From Pseudomonas sp. P8_241 (lineage in GTDB: Bacteria; Pseudomonadota; Gammaproteobacteria; Pseudomonadales; Pseudomonadaceae): a stretch of DNA of 64,000 nucleotides. Each line of letters begins with the position of its first letter. Position 1 is the first letter of the stretch. The notes beneath the pieces were generated by a model. It saw only the letters and a list, made by a program, of their open reading frames with translations. It had not been told where the DNA came from and searched no databases. The translations under genes were made by a program, and so were the position numbers. Location: positions 5,024,501-5,088,500 of the forward strand of contig NZ_CP125377.1 of NCBI RefSeq assembly GCF_034008315.1, given 5' to 3'. Positions 41,462 to 51,304 of this stretch are shown piece by piece.

Positions 41462-41525
41462 TATGGCGGAGAGATAGGATTCGAACCCTAGGTACCGGTG
41501 AAGGTACAACGGATTTCGAATCCGT
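41462..41525. other. attL: partial tRNA-Ser copy
   Basis: A 64-base copy of the 3' part of tRNA-Ser(CGA), from TATGGCGGAGAGATAGG to GGATTTCGAATCCGT. It is identical to 51213-51277 except for one missing G. It ends at the anticodon stem and lacks the 5' half, so it is not a functional tRNA. Confidence 0.92.
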
Positions 41526-41617
41526 TTTCGCCCATAATGATCATTGGGCGCCCTTCCTCAGAACCCTTTCATGGCCTCATTTTCGACGCAGACCAACACA
41601 ACGACATTCCACACCAT

Positions 41618-41649
41618 TTGGGGGAATGGTTCCCCCAATTTTCCCCCAG
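41618..41649. repeat. Left arm-type repeat cluster
   Basis: TTGGGGGAA, TGG, TTCCCCCAA form a 9-3-9 palindrome followed by TTCCCCCAG, about 95 bases inside attL. A matching cluster with the same order and orientation lies inside attR. Candidate integrase or excisionase arm sites. Confidence 0.55.
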
Positions 41650-41696
41650 CGCTCTGCCGGCCGAACATACTCCCTATATAAAGGAAGGATGCGCAG

Positions 41697-42119
41697 TCAC
41701 GGCACATCCTTGAAGAAGACATGACCGCCCAGTTTCAGTGTCTTCTTCGCCTTCGCTGCCCAAGCCGGCGCCTTAATGCTGGTGGCGTAGTAATGCGTGG
41801 CGCCGCCGGTGGGATCAGGCACCTTGCCACCCATCACCTGCTCAGCGGCGATCTGCGCCTGAGCGAACTCGCGGAACGGGATTTGCTTCGCACCGGACAG
41901 GTAAGCGAAGTTCGGATCGTTCTTGTTCCAGCAGCTGAACTGGTACGGCTTCTGGCAGACACCGGCGTAGCCCTCGCCCCACCATGATTTAGCCTTGCCA
42001 TCGTTCACGCGGTTGCGAATTGTCCAGGCTACGGCGACCTGGCCGGCAAGGCTTTCCCCGCGAGCCTCGCCCCACAGCGTGCGCGCGAGGATGTCGCGGT
42101 CTCCTTCAGTGACGGTCAT
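41697..42119 (-). CDS. SleB-type cell wall hydrolase (endolysin)
   Basis: A 140-residue Hydrolase_2/SleB-family protein that cleaves peptidoglycan. Conserved elements are LARTLWGEARGESLAGQVAV with the catalytic Glu, VAWTIRNRV, YQFSCWNKNDPN and DPTGGATHYY. There is no signal peptide and no holin or spanin gene beside it. TGGAGAAA precedes the ATG. The usual role is host lysis. Confidence 0.9.
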   Translation of the reverse strand: MTVTEGDRDILARTLWGEARGESLAGQVAVAWTIRNRVNDGKAKSWWGEGYAGVCQKPYQFSCWNKNDPNFAYLSGAKQIPFREFAQAQIAAEQVMGGKVPDPTGGATHYYATSIKAPAWAAKAKKTLKLGGHVFFKDVP

Positions 42120-42134
42120 ATTTTCTCCAGGCGT

Positions 42135-42165
42135 AAAAAAGCCCGCACGTGGCGGGCCTGTTTTT
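42135..42165 (-). terminator. Terminator after the acetyltransferase-like gene
   Basis: Read on the minus strand, GCCCGC, a short loop and GCGGGC are followed by six T residues. It separates the AT-rich cargo gene from the endolysin. Confidence 0.8.
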
Positions 42166-42216
42166 CAAATTACATGCAGGGCTGTAATTGCAAAAATAAT
42201 ATAAACCTAAAGTAAC

Positions 42217-42987
42217 TTACCAAAATTTAAGAAGTTTCAGGAAGCTCGTCAAACGACTGTATTTGTGCACCGGGGAAGTATAATCCAGCGATTCTACCGT
42301 AGGAGTGTCTTCAACTGTCAAATTCCAGTAATCGGTCAGCGCTATAGAGCCTGGGTCATCTTTGTAATAAGGTTTTGTTAATGTCAAATGCGGGCGCTCC
42401 CATGCGATATCTTTCCGCACGACTTTTCCCGGCACCCCGACTATAATGCAGTTATTGGGAAATTTACCTTTCACGATACTGCCAATGCCCACGACGCTTC
42501 CGTCGCCGATGGTGGTCCCGCCCAGAATCCGCGTGTAAGCGCCAAGCCAAACATGATTACCAATCATCACATTTTTTGGAAGATTGATTCTTTTTCTGGT
42601 TCGCACATCGAATATTGGATGTCCATCATCTGCTCTTATCTCAACCTGAGAAGCGAACATGATGTCATCACCAAGGTGCACTGATGCCTTTTCAGCCGCA
42701 GATATATAGACCGGCGAAGTGCAATTTATTCCAGAGCCAATCTTGATCGTAGACTCAAACCCTACTCTCACAACACCACTGAAAGTGTTTTTTCCTATCT
42801 CGCAATAACCATCATCACAATCAAACATTATTGTAAGATTTCTATTTTTAGCTTCAGGATGAATAACCAGCTTGTTATTTTTTCCTGTAAACTCAACTTT
42901 AAAACCCGACTCGATGACGACCCCACAAGAAATTACATTATTATTGTCATCTTTATAATCTTGAATCTTAGTCAGAACAATCTTCAA
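42217..42987 (-). CDS. Hexapeptide-repeat acyltransferase-like protein, AT-rich cargo gene
   Basis: A 256-residue protein with a left-handed beta-helix made of hexapeptide repeats, e.g. MIGNHVWLGAYTRILGGTT and IGDGSVVGIGSIVKGKF, ending in NNCIIVGVPGKVVRKDI as in sugar O-acetyltransferases. There is no ATG start. TTG 42987 is chosen because GGAG lies 5 bases upstream; TTG 43008 is the longest alternative. Base composition is far more AT-rich than its neighbours, which marks separate acquisition. A lysogenic-conversion role in surface glycan acetylation is inference. Confidence 0.82.
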   Translation of the reverse strand: MKIVLTKIQDYKDDNNNVISCGVVIESGFKVEFTGKNNKLVIHPEAKNRNLTIMFDCDDGYCEIGKNTFSGVVRVGFESTIKIGSGINCTSPVYISAAEKASVHLGDDIMFASQVEIRADDGHPIFDVRTRKRINLPKNVMIGNHVWLGAYTRILGGTTIGDGSVVGIGSIVKGKFPNNCIIVGVPGKVVRKDIAWERPHLTLTKPYYKDDPGSIALTDYWNLTVEDTPTVESLDYTSPVHKYSRLTSFLKLLKFW

Positions 42988-43145
42988 ACCACACTCCAAG
43001 CGTGACAATCAAGCATTAGGCCCGGACTGTAACGGAAGTACATTTTTTTATCTAGCCGTTTTATTGACTGCCAAGGGATGTGGCTTATCGCGAGGTCAGA
43101 CCTCTCCAACCGACGTTCCGCGGGCTTGGAAGAAAGGAGTGGAAA

Positions 43146-43310
43146 TTATTTTTTGCCTGGCTCAGGAGCTGGATCAGGCACAGAAGTTGAATCAGGAACA
43201 GGGGTCATGGCTTCAAGCCCGCGAACCAGCATGGCAACTTCGCGATATGGCCGGGTTGTCAAATAATCAGCTACCGCCTGCGCCAATTGTTGTTCGATCA
43301 AAAATTTCAT
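43146..43310 (-). CDS. Small phage protein (54 residues)
   Basis: Begins MKFLIEQQLAQAVADYL and has a Pro-rich tail PDSTSVPDPAPEPGKK. GAGGT lies 9 bases before the ATG at 43310, and the upstream small gene ends 3 bases before it. Small proteins of this kind follow tail-fibre genes in Pseudomonas phages. Function unknown. Confidence 0.75.
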   Translation of the reverse strand: MKFLIEQQLAQAVADYLTTRPYREVAMLVRGLEAMTPVPDSTSVPDPAPEPGKK

Positions 43311-43313
43311 TGG

Positions 43314-43493
43314 TTATACCTCATTTGTTTGATTTGTGAGCAAGCTTGAATTGCGCGCTACGGCGTCCTCAAGGGCGGACATTCGGGCCAGAAGCCCCTC
43401 TACAGCTAAGGCAGTTGGAAGGATAAACTCATGGTGTTGTTGCTGCACGGAGCGGACGATCGGGGCAATGAACTCGTCGTAACCAAGCGACAT
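43314..43493 (-). CDS. Small phage protein after tail fibre (59 residues)
   Basis: Begins MSLGYDEFIAPIVRSVQQQH and ends SSLLTNQTNEV. Its ATG overlaps the tail-fibre stop by one base (TGATG), so it is translationally coupled. The second half is a likely short coiled coil. It may be a tail-fibre accessory or trimerisation protein (inference). Confidence 0.75.
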   Translation of the reverse strand: MSLGYDEFIAPIVRSVQQQHHEFILPTALAVEGLLARMSALEDAVARNSSLLTNQTNEV

Positions 43494-45976
43494 CACGTCG
43501 CCCCCCCCTTAACCGCATGATGCTGGAACCCTCCAAAGTCAATGCCCTTGGTTTGGATGGTGCGCTCCACGTCCTGAGCGCGAAACCCTTGGTGGAATCG
43601 ACTTCGTACTTTACTGCCATCGCGGGGCTTAACGACGGAAATTTCTTCGCCAGTTACAGGATCAAGCTCCAATTCAATATAGTCATCTCGCATGTCCCAC
43701 TTAAAATCAATCGGTTTCAAGTCAAGGATGAAATCGAGCCCCAGTAGGGTTTCCCGAATCTCAGCCTTGTCCCGTTCATCTGAACGGTTCTGCACAGTGC
43801 CATACACATAGAAGTTAGTAGCACTATCTCCGCCTTGGACCTGATTAGGACCGGACACCCGTGTATTCGCACCAAGCAGGGTGCTGTTGGATACCGATAC
43901 GGAAGGCGTCGAACCATCGATCATCACCAGTCCCGCCTGATATCCGATTGCAGTAGTGTTGATTGTCGGGCCCGAGTTGTTCAGTAATGCTCGATACCCA
44001 TGGGTTGTTACCCCGACCAAGGGGCCGACAGCATTCTCGCAGGAGTTGCTGCCAGAAATCGCGGAATTGCTAATAGACGTTACAGTCTTCGCAGCGTAGG
44101 CCCCGGACACAGTTGAGTTATTGCAAGTAGTTGTGTCAGAGGCGGCCTGCGACCCGTTAATTAATTTGTTCTGAGATAAAGGTGCATCGACCAAGGAGGT
44201 TGTCCAGTAAAGTCTGGCGTTTCCCGACCCATCTCCATTATAAGGGCAATATACAGTGAAGTTGTCACCACTGACGCTGAGTACATCCACCGGAAATCCG
44301 TGACCGTGGCCCGCATAGGCTGGGCCCCCTCCAGCCCAATAAATATTAGCGCGCCCACCTACAACGGCTGCATGCCCGGGAGCAGTTACAGTAATCACTG
44401 ATCCAATCTTGCTATAGGTAACGTAAGGATCACTAGGGTAATCACTCTTGACCTTTCCGCCGAATCCGGAAAGATTTTCTAGAAACTGCCCCGCAAGAGC
44501 GCCACATATTACGTTGTTGTTGCCCTTCCTTAAGTTGAAACCTGCTCTGTACCCGTTTGCCACCAAGACAATACCAGTGTATGACTTCGCAGCATCCGAT
44601 CCCAAAGCCACTATCTGTGTGGCAACGTTAGTATTGGGATCGAAGTTCTCGACCTGCGCATACCAGCCGCTCAAAACCTCGCCGGAAAGAGCGTTAGCGC
44701 CCATAGCCAGTACGGTGTCACAGTTGACTAGGCTCGCTCCTGTGTTCCGTCCCACGAGCACGTTAGCCCGGCCCGTGGTCAAAGACCTGCCTGCGTTACC
44801 GCCAAGCCCTACATTGCGTGTGCCTGCGATAGCTACGGTGCTGTATGAATCGGTAACAGGCTGCAAGCTGTATAGGGCGCACTCTCCCATGGCGAGGTTA
44901 TCGAAAGACTTTTGCGCCGTGCCGATTGCGTCAGGCCCAATAGCGATAGTTTGTTGGGCTCCTGTTGCAAGGGCTAATGCCCCTACCCCGGCCGCAAAGA
45001 TGCTCGAGTGGTATGCAAATTGGTTTGCTGGAGGCTGATAGCTTGGCGGAATTGAACCACCAGCTCCGCCAATACATACCACCCCGTTCCCGTCACGCAC
45101 CATTTTCCACATAGCTGGGTGAGTGACTGCGCCGATTTTGAAGTAGCCCCCATAATACTTGTTCCCCGTTGGGAAGGCATTTACTAGGTAGGTCTTGCCA
45201 AGCAGATCAACTTCTTTACCAGTGTGCACAACCTCCAGCGCTGTAAACTTCGAACTATCGTTAGTCGCCCCATCTCCGACAGCCAAGTAATCCTGCGGCG
45301 TTACGCTTTCTCGAAATTTATCTTGCCCTGTGCGGATAGCCGCACCTACGCCGGCCTGCTGAACACCGACAACATTGGAGCCGTCAGGCGCTGCAAGCAA
45401 AGCCCCATCCAGATTGTTAGGCTCCCACTCAGACGCCTTGTAAATGTATTCAAGGTCTTCTTCGCTGTTGAAATAGCGGTCACCCAGTTGTAGAGCAGCG
45501 CCGTCATTGCGCGCAATCGGCTCCGCGGAAAAGGTGCCAAGGAATGGTGCCACGCGAGCCGTGGCCAGATCAGCCGAATCCTCGGCGGCGTTTGCGGACT
45601 CAAGCGCGGCATCCATAGCGGCTTGAATGGCTGCAGCAGATAATGCGCGCTTGCCAGTATCCTCAGCCACGCCGGCAGTGTTGCTGTAGACGGCATAGAT
45701 TTCATCTGGATCGGCCGAGCGGACCAGGAAGATGGCGCCATCAGTTGTCCCGGCAATACCCGCAGCAGTCGTCGGATAAATCGTTGTAGCAAAGCTGATC
45801 TTTTCAGCGCCTTCCTCCTGAATGCTGACGATCACCTGTTTCAGGTTTTGGATATCGCCGGAGTCCGTAGGGATCGGATCAGCGCCGACCGCGTCATGAG
45901 AAAACCGGCTGATTATATCGCTGCCGATCTCGGCCTTTACCGTGGCGATCTCTAGCCGCTGGGTCTGGTCTGCCAT
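43493..45976 (-). CDS. Phage tail fibre/spike with C-terminal S74 chaperone domain
   Basis: An 827-residue structural protein. The N-terminal part (about 1-160) is Ala-rich and alpha-helical (AALESANAAEDSADLATARV), typical of the virion anchor. The middle (about 320-720) is a long repetitive beta region with recurring LGxNA/GYxAG units, like trimeric YadA-head-type repeats. The C-terminus carries a peptidase S74-type intramolecular chaperone: RSDERDKAEIRETLLGLDFI, PIDFKWDMRDDY and HQGFRAQDVE. The chaperone self-cleaves after trimer folding in the family. It is the likely receptor-binding protein. Confidence 0.9.
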   Translation of the reverse strand: MADQTQRLEIATVKAEIGSDIISRFSHDAVGADPIPTDSGDIQNLKQVIVSIQEEGAEKISFATTIYPTTAAGIAGTTDGAIFLVRSADPDEIYAVYSNTAGVAEDTGKRALSAAAIQAAMDAALESANAAEDSADLATARVAPFLGTFSAEPIARNDGAALQLGDRYFNSEEDLEYIYKASEWEPNNLDGALLAAPDGSNVVGVQQAGVGAAIRTGQDKFRESVTPQDYLAVGDGATNDSSKFTALEVVHTGKEVDLLGKTYLVNAFPTGNKYYGGYFKIGAVTHPAMWKMVRDGNGVVCIGGAGGSIPPSYQPPANQFAYHSSIFAAGVGALALATGAQQTIAIGPDAIGTAQKSFDNLAMGECALYSLQPVTDSYSTVAIAGTRNVGLGGNAGRSLTTGRANVLVGRNTGASLVNCDTVLAMGANALSGEVLSGWYAQVENFDPNTNVATQIVALGSDAAKSYTGIVLVANGYRAGFNLRKGNNNVICGALAGQFLENLSGFGGKVKSDYPSDPYVTYSKIGSVITVTAPGHAAVVGGRANIYWAGGGPAYAGHGHGFPVDVLSVSGDNFTVYCPYNGDGSGNARLYWTTSLVDAPLSQNKLINGSQAASDTTTCNNSTVSGAYAAKTVTSISNSAISGSNSCENAVGPLVGVTTHGYRALLNNSGPTINTTAIGYQAGLVMIDGSTPSVSVSNSTLLGANTRVSGPNQVQGGDSATNFYVYGTVQNRSDERDKAEIRETLLGLDFILDLKPIDFKWDMRDDYIELELDPVTGEEISVVKPRDGSKVRSRFHQGFRAQDVERTIQTKGIDFGGFQHHAVKGGAT

Positions 45977-46038
45977 TATGTATTTCCTTGGGGCGAATTT
46001 AATGAGCGCGACCAGGTGCGGTCGGCAGAGGAATAGGG

Positions 46039-47650
46039 TTAAAGCCAGTTGCTGGAGAAGAATTCGCCGCCGTTACTGATCAGCATGTCGGCCACCGCGT
46101 CAAAGATTGTGTCGATCTGGTCGTCGTGCGCGTGGGTGTCGTCAGCCGTGAAGGCCGAGGCTTCAGTGAGGAAGGGAGCGACCCAGTCGGTGGTGGCGAC
46201 GATCTCGCCGCGGTGATCGCGAACGTTCTCGATCTTGCAGCCTTGGTCGTCGTAGATGGCCGGCACGAACACCCGGCCCGACTTGAACCAGAGCACAGCG
46301 TCCATGCATCGGGTGACCTTGTTGGCAGCAGGGCCGCGCGGTTGCGGCTCGATCGGAATCGAACCCTTTTTGCTAATGGTCTGGATCAGGCCGGTGCCGC
46401 TCGACTTGTCCTCGACACGCATATAGCGCAGGGCCGCCGGACGAAATTGGTCCCACGGCTTCCATTGCTGCCATAGGCGTAGGGCGGCCGCTTCAAGATC
46501 GCCCGCGTCGTATTTGCCGCGATGAACCTCGATGATGTACAGGTTGCCGTCGACTCCCAGGCCGCAATGACTGAAGACCGAATAGTCGTGCTGCTCGCCA
46601 GTTTTTTTGCGCGGTATCGACGTACACGCCGCGCCAAACGAGGAAAGGCAACTGCTGATAGGTCTTGAACCAGTCGGCATCGATCATGCCGCCGCTCAAT
46701 GCCACCGGCTCCTGCTGGTACTGGCTGACCATGGTGTATGGGTCGCGGTCCCACAGCGCCATCAGATCGGCGACCGTCTCCTTGGCTGGCCAGTAGGACC
46801 AGTATTCAACGCCGCCACGGACGATTGAGGGACTGCTAAAAACGTCACGCTCGGCATGCTCGCGGATCTCTGCGGGAAGCCCTTCTATATATTCACGGGT
46901 GACCAGGGCCGGAACTTTAATGTGGCTGAAGTCCAGACCCATGCCGCCCTTGAGCAGGAAGCCTGACACGTCATCCGTGTGTAGGCGCTGCTGGGTGCAG
47001 ATGACCGGGGTGTCGGGCGATGCACGCCGACTGCGCAGGGTGTTGGTAACAATCCGTTGAGCCTTGGCTCGCATGGTTGCACTGAACGCACTGTCAGCCT
47101 TCTCGGGGTCATCCAGGTTGATGAATCCGGTAAAGCCTTCGGAGATGTAGCCGCCACGCACACCGGTGATCTGTCCGCCGGTGGATCGGCTGAAGATCTG
47201 GTGTTTATTCCGTCCGTTCTCGTCGGTGATGATCCAGTTGGCCACGTCAGCCTTGCCCAGCTCGCACGGCCATAACTCCTGGTACTCGGAGCTGGTGACG
47301 ATCGACTTGATGCGGTTGGAGTTCTCTTCGACCAGCGATTTCGAGTAGGACACGCTCAGGTTTCGCGTGCGGTCGAACTTGGTCATCACATAGGCAGGCA
47401 GGTGGATCGACCAGTATTCAGTCTTTGTGCCGCCCGGGGGCATGTTGAAAACGACGTTTTTAAGCTCGCCGGCCAGGACTTGCTTGGCCGTGTAGTCCAT
47501 GTATCGGTGGTGCCAGTTGCAGAGAAACTTCATCCCCTGATTGATCTGGAAGAAGACGCGCATGAAGGCAAGCGGGGAATGCTCGCTGATCAGTTTTGAT
47601 GCTTCCTTCTCCTCCCGACTCATTGAATCCCAGTCGAGAAGCGCACTCAT
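46039..47650 (-). pseudogene. Terminase large subunit, frameshifted at an A7 tract
   Basis: Would encode about 535 residues. The N-terminal ATPase part has MPPGGTKTEYWSIHLP (Walker A region) and GFINLDDPEKADS (Walker B region). The C-terminal nuclease part has TGEQHDYSVFSHCGLGVDG and DTHAHDDQIDTIFDAV. The two parts are in different frames; the break is at seven A residues on the sense strand (46602-46608) just after VYVDTAQK, inside the first nuclease motif. One A too many explains it. Transcriptional slippage could restore some full-length protein. The start overlaps the small subunit stop by 4 bases. Confidence 0.88.
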
Positions 47651-48096
47651 AGGCGATCAAGCACAGATTCGAGAGTCTTTTTGTCCACCGTGACTTGCGA
47701 CTTCGTTTCGATAGCGCCGCCATTCTTGCCAGTGATTTCGACGATCTTCTTGTCCAGGCCCAGCAGCTTGGCTTTGCCCATGGTGGCCGAGACAGCTGCC
47801 GAGGTTTGAGGGGTTTCAGCCGAGAGAGCAGCCTTCCGCGCCTCTTCCAGCTCCAACAGCAGCGTATCGACGGTGATCTGGTGTCGGTCCATGACAGCTT
47901 CCCTTAACTCGGCGAGCCGTTCCTGCACCTGAGGCCGCTGAAACAGGTTCCAGCCCTCGCGCTGCACGGTCTTTTCCGCCATCTTGGTGACGTTGTAGGT
48001 GCGACGGTAGGCCTCGGAAGCGTTGCCAGTCTCAATATAAGCGAGGCAAAACGACTCCATCTTGTCGGTGAATCGACGCTTTTTTGGCCTTTCCAT
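47647..48096 (-). CDS. Terminase small subunit
   Basis: A 149-residue Terminase_2-family DNA-packaging protein. The N-terminal DNA-binding part has FTDKMESFCLAYIETGNASE and AYRRTYNVTKMAEKTVQREG. A helical oligomerisation segment and the tail VDKKTLESVLDRL follow. ATG 48096 is preferred over GTG 48102. It overlaps the large-subunit start by 4 bases. Confidence 0.9.
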   Translation of the reverse strand: MERPKKRRFTDKMESFCLAYIETGNASEAYRRTYNVTKMAEKTVQREGWNLFQRPQVQERLAELREAVMDRHQITVDTLLLELEEARKAALSAETPQTSAAVSATMGKAKLLGLDKKIVEITGKNGGAIETKSQVTVDKKTLESVLDRL

Positions 48097-48161
48097 ATGC
48101 ACACCTACCCGTAACTCCCTCCCCCTTCAAAGTCAGCCGCTATAGCGGCAAGGACGAAGTC

Positions 48162-48860
48162 ATGCCTGAAATAAAGGAACGGCCGATCTTATTCTCGGCC
48201 CCGATGGTGCGCGCCATCCTGGAAGGCCGGAAGACGGTCACACGGCGCGCGCTGAACGAGCAGGCGCTGAAGAACATCGGCTACGGCGTTCAGCTCGGCG
48301 AGTGCCACGAACTGCCAGCCGAAGGACCGCTGCACCCGAACAGCGTCGGGTACTACAACGACTTCTGCCCATACGGCCAACCCGGTGACCAGCTGTGGGT
48401 GCGCGAGACATGGTACTGCGATCACTTCGAAGTTGAGCGTGGCCCATACCTGCAACCTGCCGACCTGGCGGATTTGGACCAGGCCCGGGAAGATGGCGAA
48501 CTCGTTTATGCGGCAGATGGCCTGACACCGTATGAGCAGGATCAGCCAACATGGAAGCCGAGCATCCACATGCCCCGCTGGGTCAGCCGGATCTTGCTGG
48601 AAATCACCGACGTACGCCTCGAGCGGTTGCAGGACATCAGCGAAGAACAGGCGCAGGCCGAAGGAATCGTAGGCGTGGCTTTCCGACCCGATGACGGCTG
48701 GCCGATTTGCACCGGCTATATGGTCGGGCCTGACGATGGGAAGACCGGCTTGCAGACGACAGCAGCCAAGGCCTTTGCGGGTCTTTGGGATTCTGTCGGC
48801 GGCGACTGGGACGCCAACCCATGGGTCTGGGTCGTCGAGTTCAAGCAGGTGACGCCATGA
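48162..48860 (+). CDS. ASCH/PUA-like phage protein
   Basis: A 232-residue protein common in phages and prophages. The conserved N-terminus is IKERPILFSAPMVRAILEGR followed by KTVTRRA. GQPGDQLWVRETWY and MPRWVSRILLEITDVRLERL are core motifs of this ASCH-like group, and the end is NPWVWVVEFK. The fold is linked to RNA or modified-base recognition, but the role is unknown. ATG 48162 is used, with AAGGACG upstream. It begins the plus-strand run that is divergent from terminase. Confidence 0.85.
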   Translation: MPEIKERPILFSAPMVRAILEGRKTVTRRALNEQALKNIGYGVQLGECHELPAEGPLHPNSVGYYNDFCPYGQPGDQLWVRETWYCDHFEVERGPYLQPADLADLDQAREDGELVYAADGLTPYEQDQPTWKPSIHMPRWVSRILLEITDVRLERLQDISEEQAQAEGIVGVAFRPDDGWPICTGYMVGPDDGKTGLQTTAAKAFAGLWDSVGGDWDANPWVWVVEFKQVTP

Positions 48861-48922
48861 TCATCCCAATAGCCGCCCCGCTCTACATGCTCTGGCTCAT
48901 CTACAAGGGGCCGTGGCGATGA
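48857..48922 (+). CDS. 21-residue hydrophobic micropeptide
   Basis: Reads MIIPIAAPLYMLWLIYK, then GPWR. Its ATG overlaps the upstream stop (ATGA) and its stop overlaps the next gene's ATG (ATGA), so it is coupled on both sides. It would form one short membrane helix. The double overlap argues for real translation; the function is unknown. Confidence 0.6.
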   Translation: MIIPIAAPLYMLWLIYKGPWR

Positions 48923-49380
48923 GTGATGCACCTATCGAGCCGCAGGAATATTTGTACGGCGTGAAGGTTGTCCAGATCGAGGACCTTCGCGTAGCCAGAG
49001 GGATGACTCGGCGCCCAGCGTCGTCATGCCGGCACAAGAAGCTGGTATACGACGAAAAGGAGCGCCGTGTCTGGTGCAGCGACTGCGAAGCCGAGGTTGA
49101 GCCCTTTGATGCGTTCGTTGGGATCGTTGAGGTTTTAAGCGGCGGCATGAGTTCGCTTCAGCGCCGGCGACGCGAACTGGACGAAGCCGAAAAATTCCAG
49201 ATGCGAAGCCGGGCCGCCAAGGTGATGGACGAAGCCTGGCGCAGCACGAAGATGGCGCCGCTATGCCCTCACTGCAACACCGCAATCCTTCCAGAGGATG
49301 TTGCGGGTGGTGTGGCCAGCACATCAAAGGCTCTAGTCGCCGCCGCCAGAAAGCGAAACGCCGCTCAATCCCCGAAGTAA
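48919..49380 (+). CDS. Cys-rich, zinc-ribbon-like phage protein
   Basis: A 153-residue protein with SSCRHKKLVYDE, VWCSDCEAEVEPFDAFVGIV and LCPHCNTAILPED. The paired CxxC motifs suggest zinc binding. The middle is a charged helical segment (RRRRELDEAEKFQMRSRAAK). ATG 48919 overlaps the micropeptide stop. Unrecognised beyond this. Confidence 0.75.
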   Translation: MSDAPIEPQEYLYGVKVVQIEDLRVARGMTRRPASSCRHKKLVYDEKERRVWCSDCEAEVEPFDAFVGIVEVLSGGMSSLQRRRRELDEAEKFQMRSRAAKVMDEAWRSTKMAPLCPHCNTAILPEDVAGGVASTSKALVAAARKRNAAQSPK

Positions 49381-49430
49381 GCCTGCCCCAACTCAACAGC
49401 CTGTCGGTGATCGGCGGGCGAGGAATTCGC

Positions 49431-49814
49431 ATGGCAGAAATTAAGTGCCACATGGGTCACACCCAGCACGTCAGCACCACCGACTGGGTTGCCGCGCTGA
49501 CACTCGACCAGCTCCGCTTCGCACGGGATGCCATGGACGAAAAGATCAAGGCAGCCGAGGCGCAGCCAAAGCGGATCGTTTGGCGCGTGTGCCGCGGCGG
49601 TGTCTGCGATGGCAACTACCGCGAAGACCAATACGAGAAGGCCGCCGACCACCTGCTGCGCATTTTCAAGGACAAGTTCATGGAAGAGGCGGCGGACTAC
49701 GTGAAGAAACCATACGGCACTGAAACCTTCCGGCGTGAGCTTCCAAGCATCGAGATCGAGCGCGTAACTCAGTTCGAGTACGACACCGAATGGTTTCCAG
49801 CAAAAACCGAATAA
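49431..49814 (+). CDS. Hypothetical phage protein (127 residues)
   Basis: Begins MAEIKCHMGHTQHVSTTDWV and contains LTLDQLRFARDAMDEKIKAA and KRIVWRVCRGGVCDGNY. It ends QFEYDTEWFPAKTE. GAGGAA lies 6 bases before ATG 49431. Mixed helical composition; no family recognised. Confidence 0.75.
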   Translation: MAEIKCHMGHTQHVSTTDWVAALTLDQLRFARDAMDEKIKAAEAQPKRIVWRVCRGGVCDGNYREDQYEKAADHLLRIFKDKFMEEAADYVKKPYGTETFRRELPSIEIERVTQFEYDTEWFPAKTE

Positions 49815-49865
49815 CCACCTTCTGTCGCCACGCGCGGCATGGAGCACCAAACAACGGAGCAACAA

Positions 49866-50117
49866 ATGAGCGATGACGCGGAAATAGTTTTTGTGGATGG
49901 ACTGGGCAAAATGCTCGGACGAACCGAAGCATCTGTCAGGGAAGGGATTCGCCGCGGCGTGGACTGGCTGCCCAAGAGCTTCAAAATGGGCACCAGGCAC
50001 TGCTGGCTGAAAGAAGATGTGCGGGAGTTTTTGCGCGGATGCCGCGACGGCGAAAACAAAGCACCGAAGGTCGGCAGAAAGCGGCAGGCGCCGCCAACGC
50101 TGAGGGGTGTGGCGTGA
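49866..50117 (+). CDS. Excisionase/AlpA-like helix-turn-helix protein
   Basis: An 83-residue protein with a winged-helix core, FVDGLGKMLGRTEASVREGI, RRGVDWLPKSFKMG and the wing TRHCWLKEDVREFLRG. This fits phage excisionases and AlpA/MerR-like regulators. GGAG lies 6 bases before ATG 49866. It is convergent with the integrase gene 8 bases away. It probably directs excision. Confidence 0.75.
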   Translation: MSDDAEIVFVDGLGKMLGRTEASVREGIRRGVDWLPKSFKMGTRHCWLKEDVREFLRGCRDGENKAPKVGRKRQAPPTLRGVA

Positions 50118-50125
50118 TTCTGGGT

Positions 50126-51103
50126 TTACCCCAGCTTCTCGGCCAAGTCGTGCGGGGAAAGGTGGGTGTACCGCTTGAGCATCGCCAGGGTCTTGTGCCC
50201 GGTGATACTCGCCACCTCCATCAAGGAAAGGCCGCGCTCGAACAGGCGGCTGGTTGCTTCGTGACGCATATCGTGAAGGCGGAGGTCTTTTATCTCTGCC
50301 GCTTCACAGGCCAGCGCGAAATAGTTGCTGACGCTGTCCATTTTCAAATGAAAGTACCTGCCGCCGTCAATTGGCGTCGGCAATCCCTCCAAGAGTTCCA
50401 CCGCCCGCGTTGATAGCGGGACGGACCGGCGCTCGCCGTTCTTCGTGTCTTCGAGGAATGCAACTCTTCCCCTGATCTGATCCTTCCGGAGCATTACCAG
50501 CTCCGATCGGCGCATTGCCGTCTCCACGGCCAGTTCGATGATGACTGGCAGCTCGGCATTGATCTCGCCGGCATGCTTATAGATGTTCTTCAGCTCTTTG
50601 GCCGTTGGTCGGCGCTCTCGCTGCTTGTTGCCCTTCGGCATGCGGATAGCTGTGCACGGGTTCTTCAGTCCATCGATACCCGAGTCCTTCGACGCAACTG
50701 TATATAGATGGCTGATCAGCGCGAGATCCAACCGAACAGTGGCAGTTGATTTCCCCGACTTCAATTGGGCGTCACGGTATGCGGCCATGTCGCTGGAGCG
50801 GATGGTCGCCAGCGATTTGGCGCCGTACTCCGACTTCTTCCACTTTTCGGCGCGGACCTTTTCCTGCTTCTCGCCCTTCTTGGTCTTGCTGACCTCATTC
50901 AGGTATCGCGTCAGAGCGTCTTCGAGCGTGGTGCTTTCCGCCTCCCGGGTGTCGACAAATCGCGAGCGAGACATATCGCCCTCGATCTCGGCAGCCCATC
51001 GCTGAGCTTCTGCCTTTGTGTCGAAGGTGGCTGAAAGTGTCGGGTATCCTTTGCGACGGATCTGGGCTCGCCAGGCGTCACCGCGTTTTTCGTAATAGGC
51101 CAT
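50126..51103 (-). CDS. Tyrosine-family integrase
   Basis: A 325-residue phage integrase with the N-terminal arm-binding domain, core-binding SAM-like domain and catalytic domain. The active-site residues are in AVETAMRRSELVML (Arg), DTKNGERRSVPLS (Lys region), LHDMRHEATSRLF (His and Arg) and GHKTLAMLKRYTHLS (His and nucleophile Tyr). The start at MAYYEKRGDAWRAQI fits the family; a longer reading extends into non-protein-like sequence. It lies beside tRNA-Ser, its integration target. Confidence 0.94.
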   Translation of the reverse strand: MAYYEKRGDAWRAQIRRKGYPTLSATFDTKAEAQRWAAEIEGDMSRSRFVDTREAESTTLEDALTRYLNEVSKTKKGEKQEKVRAEKWKKSEYGAKSLATIRSSDMAAYRDAQLKSGKSTATVRLDLALISHLYTVASKDSGIDGLKNPCTAIRMPKGNKQRERRPTAKELKNIYKHAGEINAELPVIIELAVETAMRRSELVMLRKDQIRGRVAFLEDTKNGERRSVPLSTRAVELLEGLPTPIDGGRYFHLKMDSVSNYFALACEAAEIKDLRLHDMRHEATSRLFERGLSLMEVASITGHKTLAMLKRYTHLSPHDLAEKLG

Positions 51104-51123
51104 GCGGGGATAGTAGCGCGAGT

Positions 51124-51168
51124 CTGGGGGAATGGCACGAGGGACCGATTCCCCCAAATTTCCCCCAA
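51124..51168. repeat. Right arm-type repeat cluster
   Basis: CTGGGGGAA at 51124-51132, TTCCCCCAA at 51149-51157 and TTCCCCCAA at 51160-51168, between the integrase start and attR. It mirrors the left cluster at 41618-41649. Confidence 0.55.
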
Positions 51169-51172
51169 ATAC

Positions 51173-51210
51173 AAAAAAGCCCCGAGGCGGTTAAGCGCTC
51201 GGGGCCTTTA
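51173..51210 (-). terminator. Terminator after tRNA-Ser, carried by the element
   Basis: On the minus strand GGCCCCGAG, loop and CTCGGGGC are followed by six T residues, just 3' of the tRNA. The element appears to supply a replacement for the displaced host terminator at 41428. Confidence 0.8.
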
Positions 51211-51212
51211 AA

Positions 51213-51277
51213 TATGGCGGAGAGATAGGGATTCGAACCCTAGGTACCGGTGAAGGTACAACGGATTTCGAATCCGT
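51213..51277. other. attR: direct repeat within tRNA-Ser
   Basis: The 65-base right copy of the attachment repeat, overlapping the 3' 63 bases of the intact tRNA-Ser. It differs from attL by one extra G in GATAGGGATTC. Confidence 0.92.
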
Positions 51278-51304
51278 CCCATTCGGCCACTCTGGCATCT
51301 CTCC
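51215..51304 (-). tRNA. tRNA-Ser (anticodon CGA)
   Basis: A 90-base tRNA with encoded CCA. The acceptor stem pairs GGAGAGA with TCTCTCC, the anticodon stem-loop is ACGGA-TTCGAAA-TCCGT (anticodon CGA), the long variable arm is typical of tRNA-Ser, and the T loop contains GGTTCGAATCC. It is the integration target of the phage-derived element. Confidence 0.96.

What the first reader, a model, noticed from the sequence alone, without database searches (positions are those of the whole stretch)
41462..51277. Compact phage-derived element in tRNA-Ser(CGA): terminase joined to a tail fibre, no capsid genes
The boundaries are exact (64/65-base direct repeat; intact tRNA on the right). The gene set has packaging, tail-fibre, lysis and integration modules but no portal, capsid, tail tube, tape measure, baseplate, replication or repressor. 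Either a single large deletion fused the terminase and fibre ends of a prophage, or this is a satellite that borrows structural proteins from a helper while supplying packaging and host-range functions. The intact integrase and excisionase-like genes suggest it may still move.
Basis: partly seen in the sequence, partly recalled or inferred. Interest (0 to 1): 0.75.

Follow-up and report, generated by a model that had tools for sequence, protein, structure and literature searches.

The report
Prophage remnant from one internal deletion
This is the leftover of a once full-size virus integrated in a Pseudomonas chromosome, cut down to about ten kilobases by one internal deletion; it looks ordinary and not like a satellite element.

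Summary
The element is real: 41462-51277, bounded by a 64/65-base repeat of the tRNA-Ser(CGA) 3' end. It is best read as a contractile-tailed prophage shortened by one internal deletion, not a satellite. The terminase-fibre join is no scar: in 58 of 58 close relatives with enough DNA the fibre follows terL directly, and in 58 of 58 a structural gene lies directly upstream of terS. The scar lies between terS and the ASCH-like gene, at 48105-48108, where the terS leader and an early-gene end overlap by 4 bases. Record G426 (47.9 kb) carries relatives of both ends (int 88%, xis 90%, terS 72%, terL 88%, fibre N terminus 62%) with about 36.5 kb of head, tail and early genes between. No short form was found: 0 of 80 ASCH loci carry terS; 0 of 36 int relatives carry terS or terL in the DNA held. 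terL is frameshifted; in 71 of 71 relatives one frame spans that place. The own genome shows no second copy of this terL. A conserved intergenic motif beside the scar is the more unusual observation.

The parts
41462..41525 (.). left attachment copy (64 nt of the tRNA-Ser 3' end)
41697..42119 (-). endolysin, Hydrolase_2 (SleB-like)
   Evidence: PF07486 E 1.7e-19; homolog at the same end of relative L057
42217..43008 (-). hexapeptide-repeat acetyltransferase, cargo gene after the fibre, in an AT-rich stretch
   Evidence: PF00132; best NCBIfam match WbbJ-type LPS O-acetyltransferase, far below its cut-off; GC 0.456 in 42500-43499
43146..43310 (-). 54-aa ORF, unknown
   Evidence: no Pfam or PHROG match
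43314..43496 (-). 60-aa ORF, unknown
   Evidence: no Pfam or PHROG match
43493..45976 (-). tail fibre/tailspike, 827 aa, with C-terminal S74 chaperone; N terminus conserved in relatives of this phage group
   Evidence: PF13884, phrog_4636; relatives align over the first 56-196 residues
46039..46680 (-). terL C-terminal part (nuclease), separate frame
   Evidence: PF17289, phrog_38
46493..47650 (-). terL N-terminal part (ATPase); frameshifted against the C part
   Evidence: phrog_38 E 5e-65
47647..48102 (-). terS, terminase small subunit, open
   Evidence: PF03592, phrog_51
48105..48108 (.). deletion junction: 4-nt overlap of terS-leader homology (left) and early-gene-end homology (right)
48117..48154 (+). 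conserved intergenic motif with 14-bp palindrome (48136-48149) and Shine-Dalgarno-like AAGGA
48162..48860 (+). ASCH-like early gene (phrog_874)
48913..49380 (+). 155-aa early protein, phrog_8538
   Evidence: 86% in MT121966
49431..49814 (+). 127-aa early protein, phrog_10878 (one search lists a longer ORF from 49263)
   Evidence: relatives at 53-94% in 4 of 80 ASCH loci
49839..50117 (+). excisionase-like 92-aa protein, phrog_6355, weak phrog_66
   Evidence: homolog near int in 36 of 36 int relatives at 68% or more
50126..51157 (-). tyrosine integrase
   Evidence: PF00589 E 2.6e-22; seven mapped relatives at 75-88% sit at tRNA-Ser(CGA)
51213..51277 (.). right attachment copy, overlapping the intact tRNA-Ser
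51215..51304 (-). tRNA-Ser(CGA), intact

Best explanation
A full-size (about 46-48 kb) temperate phage with a contractile tail integrated at the 3' end of tRNA-Ser(CGA). One internal deletion of roughly 36 kb (estimated from G426) then joined the leader of terS to the end of an early gene just upstream of the ASCH-like gene. It removed portal, head, sheath, tube, tape measure, baseplate, replication and control genes, and kept the two prophage ends. The 4-base overlap suggests end joining or slippage at microhomology (inferred). terL also took a frameshift, before or after. What remains should not replicate or make particles (inferred); it may still be excised by its integrase (inferred), and its acetyltransferase may alter the host surface polysaccharide (inferred).
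For: In 58 of 58 close relatives (52 of 52 distinct sequences) with at least 500 bases upstream of terS a baseplate, collar or other structural gene lies there, and in 58 of 58 with at least 600 bases after terL the fibre follows after 50-88 bases. Each side of 48105-48108 matches a different ordinary context. G426 has relatives of both ends in one 47.9-kb record: int 88%, xis 90%, terS 72%, terL 88%, fibre N terminus 62%; terS start to motif spans about 36.5 kb. The same int family sits beside tRNA-Ser(CGA) in 7 of 7 mapped genomes at 75-88%. No short form found. terL broken.
Against: No reading frame other than terL was seen broken, so decay is not advanced; int, xis, terS and fibre could be under selection (not tested). 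G426 has no match to the ASCH gene or to the 155-aa and 127-aa proteins, so the exact ancestor was not seen. More than one event could have produced the loss. An assembly error at the junction cannot be excluded without reads. In 4 of 71 relatives (L104, L106, L108, L114) terL is also not one whole frame, though broken elsewhere or cut, so the frameshift alone is weak evidence of decay.
Confidence: 0.93

Rival explanations
1. A phage satellite that carries its own terminase and fibre and borrows capsid and tail from a helper.
For: Compact, with open int, xis-like gene and terS; no head or tail-tube genes. A Pseudomonas helper-satellite pair is in print (PMC4936722, passages read).
Against: No conserved short form in the loci mapped; terL broken; no replication gene recognised and only a weak match of the xis-like protein to a regulator family (phrog_66, E 0.0091); no second copy of this terL and no family portal (without positive control) in the own genome. 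Each half is a piece of an ordinary prophage joined at one point.
Confidence: 0.04
2. A domesticated remnant kept by the host for lysogenic conversion: the acetyltransferase changes surface polysaccharide and so blocks phage adsorption. This concerns why the remnant stays and is compatible with the deletion reading.
For: The slot after the fibre holds changing genes: of five relatives' slot genes scanned, two look polysaccharide-related (acyltransferase 3 in L012; a sub-threshold O-antigen-ligase match in L015). Relatives of the window gene (31-43%) lie after the fibre in L074, L096 and L114. The window gene is nearest to WbbJ-type O-acetyltransferases.
Against: The other three slot genes (L016, L211, L057) gave no polysaccharide family. 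No test of selection or expression was made.
Confidence: 0.2
3. An assembly or sequencing artefact: the junction and the terL frameshift are errors in a genome that holds a full prophage.
For: The frameshift lies in a homopolymer run; no reads were available.
Against: The genome is one contig, rated 100% complete, and no second copy of this terL or family portal (no positive control) was found in it. The frameshift alone could still be an error.
Confidence: 0.03

Closest known systems
Defective (cryptic, 'grounded') prophages with internal deletions (PMC6379469, search listing and start of abstract only; the rest recalled)
   Same: att sites and integrase kept, lytic genes lost, cargo gene kept
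   Different: nothing essential; here the junction can be placed to 4 bases
Full-length Pseudomonas contractile-tailed prophages with terS-terL-fibre at the end of the late operon (G426 = IMGVR_UViG_2917106160_000001; contigs of P. rhodesiae, P. lactis, P. proteolytica, P. fontis; phage scaffold MT835615)
   Same: gene order from terS to fibre, terL 84-91% in those named; G426 also shares int and xis
   Different: they keep the head and tail genes and a terL open across the place where the window's is broken
Phi-AH14b satellite of Pseudomonas sp. ANT_H14 (PMC4936722, passages read)
   Same: small integrated element without structural genes in Pseudomonas
   Different: AH14b has AlpA-, primase- and helicase-like genes and a co-resident helper; none of these was recognised here
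PICIs, cf-PICIs, P4-like satellites (recalled; only search listings seen)
   Same: small size, integrase; some carry terminase genes (recalled)
   Different: no conserved short gene set, no replication module recognised, broken terL, no helper seen

Membership tests
Deletion-derived defective prophage | flanked by att repeats with integrase at one end | tested here: met
Deletion-derived defective prophage | full-length relatives contain the missing block at the junction | tested here: met
   58 of 58 loci with enough DNA; G426
Deletion-derived defective prophage | single junction joining two otherwise distant regions | tested here: met
   distance in G426 about 36.5 kb
Deletion-derived defective prophage | cannot produce particles | not testable with these tools
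   inferred from gene content and the broken terL
Phage satellite (P4/PICI/AH14b type) | conserved short gene set in several genomes | tested here: not met
   0 of 80 ASCH loci with terS; 0 of 36 int relatives with terS/terL in the DNA held; 58 of 58 terS contexts structural. Strains of the same species could not be searched
Phage satellite (P4/PICI/AH14b type) | own replication or regulatory module (primase, AlpA; taken from PMC4936722 and recall) | tested here: not met
   none recognised among 13 ORFs in Pfam and PHROGs; the xis-like protein has a weak match to an excisionase/regulator family (phrog_66, E 0.0091), and several small ORFs are of unknown function
Phage satellite (P4/PICI/AH14b type) | helper phage able to supply structure | tested here: inconclusive
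   no second copy of this terL and no family portal (no positive control) in the own genome; a contractile-tail region exists at C1:4037349; phages outside the genome cannot be tested
Phage satellite (P4/PICI/AH14b type) | induced and packaged | not testable with these tools
   needs an experiment
cf-PICI | carries its own capsid and packaging genes (recalled) | tested here: not met
   no capsid or portal family match among 13 ORFs; terL frameshifted

The most novel reading that the evidence does not exclude
A prophage caught on the way to becoming a satellite: with int, xis-like gene and terS still open, it could be excised and packaged by the terminase large subunit and particles of a related infecting phage, spreading its fibre and acetyltransferase genes.
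Probability: 0.05. Interest if true: 0.55.

Novelty: new member of a known kind. Interest (0 to 1): 0.13.

Why it matters
It removes a candidate satellite from the list and shows how gene order can mislead: terminase beside fibre looks like a scar but is the ordinary layout of this phage group. The junction can be placed to four bases, a clean example of prophage loss by one deletion. The conserved motif next to the junction, found in 83 of 298 genomes of the genus, is a better lead than the element itself.

Tried and rejected
Terminase-fibre fusion by deletion: rejected. Satellite: rejected as main reading. Plasmid relatives of the whole element by megablast: none. Programmed frameshift in terL: rejected, since in 71 of 71 relatives one frame spans the place. 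Helper search in the own genome: family portal 0 of 1 (the tool warns that an empty answer without a positive control shows nothing); phrog_2, which I recalled as a terminase family but whose label the tool did not show, 0 of 1 (its control rang in 11 of 14 genomes, so it says little); one sheath match in a region of contractile-tail genes (read by eye, not analysed further). Defence genes: none of six proteins (five from the window) matched PADLOC. RNA reading of the motif: fold z-score -1.39, 19 of 200 shuffles as good, so not supported by energy alone. Literature searches gave nothing used. The terS scan is not independent: the 24 loci at 64% or more that one search counted (24 of 24 with structural genes upstream) are contigs already found. 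Not mapped: the five genus genomes with terL at 50-52% (L006-L010), L120-L121, and five of the six places with int at 65-68%; the one of these mapped, G145, has a tRNA-Cys(GCA) beside int instead of tRNA-Ser. The nine terL loci at 44-49% were mapped but left out of the 58. Only 45 of the 68 viral records were searched for int and ASCH.
Full report
Observation. The element spans 41462-51277. A 64-nt copy (41462-41525) and a 65-nt copy (51213-51277) of the 3' end of tRNA-Ser(CGA) flank it, differing by one indel; the intact tRNA is 51215-51304 on the minus strand. In relative G002 (locus L356) the LysR region of the left flank (79% over 1219 bases), an intact tRNA-Ser and the right flank (92.7% over 1787 bases) lie together without the element, an empty site; of the seven LysR loci fetched this was the only one with the tRNA in reach (one was cut short by its contig end).

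Genes. From left to right: lysin (Hydrolase_2), hexapeptide acetyltransferase, two small ORFs, fibre/tailspike with S74 chaperone, terL, terS on the minus strand; then ASCH-like gene, 155-aa and 127-aa proteins and a 92-aa excisionase-like protein on the plus strand; integrase on the minus strand next to the tRNA. All 13 ORFs were scanned with Pfam and PHROGs. The ASCH label is weak (E 0.023, below the Pfam cut-off). terL is split into two overlapping frames at a run of seven A. In 71 of 71 relatives that hold both parts, one open frame spans the meeting place; in 65 of them this frame covers essentially the whole protein, two are cut by contig ends (L058, L105), and in four (L104, L106, L108, L114) the front part lies outside that frame.

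Gene order in relatives. Loci L048-L119 were mapped with the element's proteins and 20 proteins of the P. rhodesiae prophage (L014). Ten of these 20 were checked against PHROGs and nine matched: portal, head maturation protease, sheath, a virion structural protein, tape measure, baseplate hub, baseplate wedge, a structural protein and collar fibre. 63 loci have terL at 70% or more. 58 of them hold at least 500 bases upstream of terS, and all 58 (52 distinct sequences) have a baseplate, collar or structural gene there; five are too short to tell. 58 hold at least 600 bases after terL, and in all 58 the fibre N terminus follows after 50-88 bases. The nine loci at 44-49% were left out of these counts; in one of them, L109, terL is followed by the portal. 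Terminase beside fibre is therefore the ordinary layout of the close group, and the missing structural genes belong between terS and the early region.

Junction. Window sequence up to 48108 matches terS leaders of relatives; from 48105 on it matches the end of an early gene (stop codon 48112-48114), a conserved motif and the ASCH start. The overlap is CTAC. This is what a single deletion at microhomology would leave.

A full-length counterpart. Of 45 viral records with this terL searched for the integrase, 7 had a match at E <= 1e-10; three of these were 67-88% identical. G426 (47.9 kb) has int 88%, xis 90%, terS 72%, terL 88% and fibre N terminus 62%, with the structural block and early genes between. 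From its terS start to its copy of the motif is about 36.5 kb, the estimated loss. It lacks a match to the window's ASCH gene (ASCH relatives in 2 of 45 records) and to the 155-aa and 127-aa proteins, so it is a cousin and not the ancestor.

No short form. Of 80 ASCH loci (the best 80 of at least 589), 0 carry terS or terL in the DNA held. Of 36 integrase relatives at 68% or more in viral contigs, 0 carry terS or terL in the DNA held (up to 10 kb each side; in the window terS starts 2 kb from int), and 36 carry the xis-like gene. Seven genus genomes with int at 75-88% all have int beside tRNA-Ser(CGA); an eighth, at 66-68%, has tRNA-Cys(GCA) there. In the own genome no second copy of this terL was found, nor the family portal (no positive control). 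Other strains of the species were not available.

Function. Shown: the anatomy, the junction, the broken terL, the context in relatives. Inferred: loss of replication and particle formation; possible excision by int and xis; a role of the acetyltransferase in surface polysaccharide. In relatives the slot after the fibre sometimes holds polysaccharide genes (acyltransferase 3 in L012, a sub-threshold O-antigen ligase match in L015; three other slot genes gave none), and relatives of the window's acetyltransferase lie after the fibre in three loci.

The motif. Beside the junction lies CTCCCCCTTCAAAGTCAGCCGCTATAGCGGCAAGGA. In 169 collected copies 30 consecutive positions are over 90% conserved, but the copies were fetched mostly by ASCH or by the motif itself and an 18-base core was required, so this is partly by construction; the downstream ORFs fall into 32 clusters, and 161 of 169 copies have an ORF start within 70 bases, mostly 10-16 bases after the palindrome. 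A 22-base core with up to 1 mismatch occurs in 83 of 298 genomes of the genus (reversed control pattern 0) and in 3 of 293 drawn from the order: 3 of 8 in the genus, 0 of 285 outside. Phage records with it, at 90-98% identity: phiAH14a, PseuP_222, PseuP_224, SC_8_H2H8_2017 and scaffold MT836137. Rfam gave no match there at gathering thresholds. One guess is a regulatory or recombination-prone boundary between early genes; this was not tested.

Verdict. An ordinary defective prophage made by one internal deletion, with a second lesion in terL. Low interest; the motif deserves its own study.

Noticed in passing
window 48117-48154: Conserved intergenic motif with a perfect 14-bp palindrome just before a Shine-Dalgarno-like AAGGA; core in 83 of 298 Pseudomonas genomes and at least 120 viral-contig stretches, in front of many unrelated early phage genes (32 clusters). 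One literature search (two papers listed, neither opened) did not turn up a description.
   Followed up: partly
window 46602-46608: terL is split by a frameshift in a run of seven A on its coding strand; could be real or a homopolymer sequencing error.
   Followed up: partly
L038 and L046 (genome G329): The same integrase family (75%) at tRNA-Ser(CGA), with a second tRNA-Ser-like copy at L046:17547-17627, suggesting an island of about 22 kb with other cargo.
   Followed up: no
L012, L015, L074, L096, L114, window 42217-43008: The slot after the fibre in this phage group holds changing genes, some for surface polysaccharide modification.
   Followed up: partly
L236 (own genome C1:4025000-4044999): Contractile tail genes with sheath, elsewhere in this genome; P2-like by eye; prophage or tailocin not decided.
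   Followed up: no
window 42500-43499: The acetyltransferase stretch is AT-rich (GC 0.456 against 0.51-0.61 in the other 1-kb steps of the element), suggesting separate acquisition.
   Followed up: no
L104, L106, L108, L114: The front part of terL lies outside the frame that holds the rest, so other contigs may also carry broken terL genes or sequence errors.
   Followed up: no
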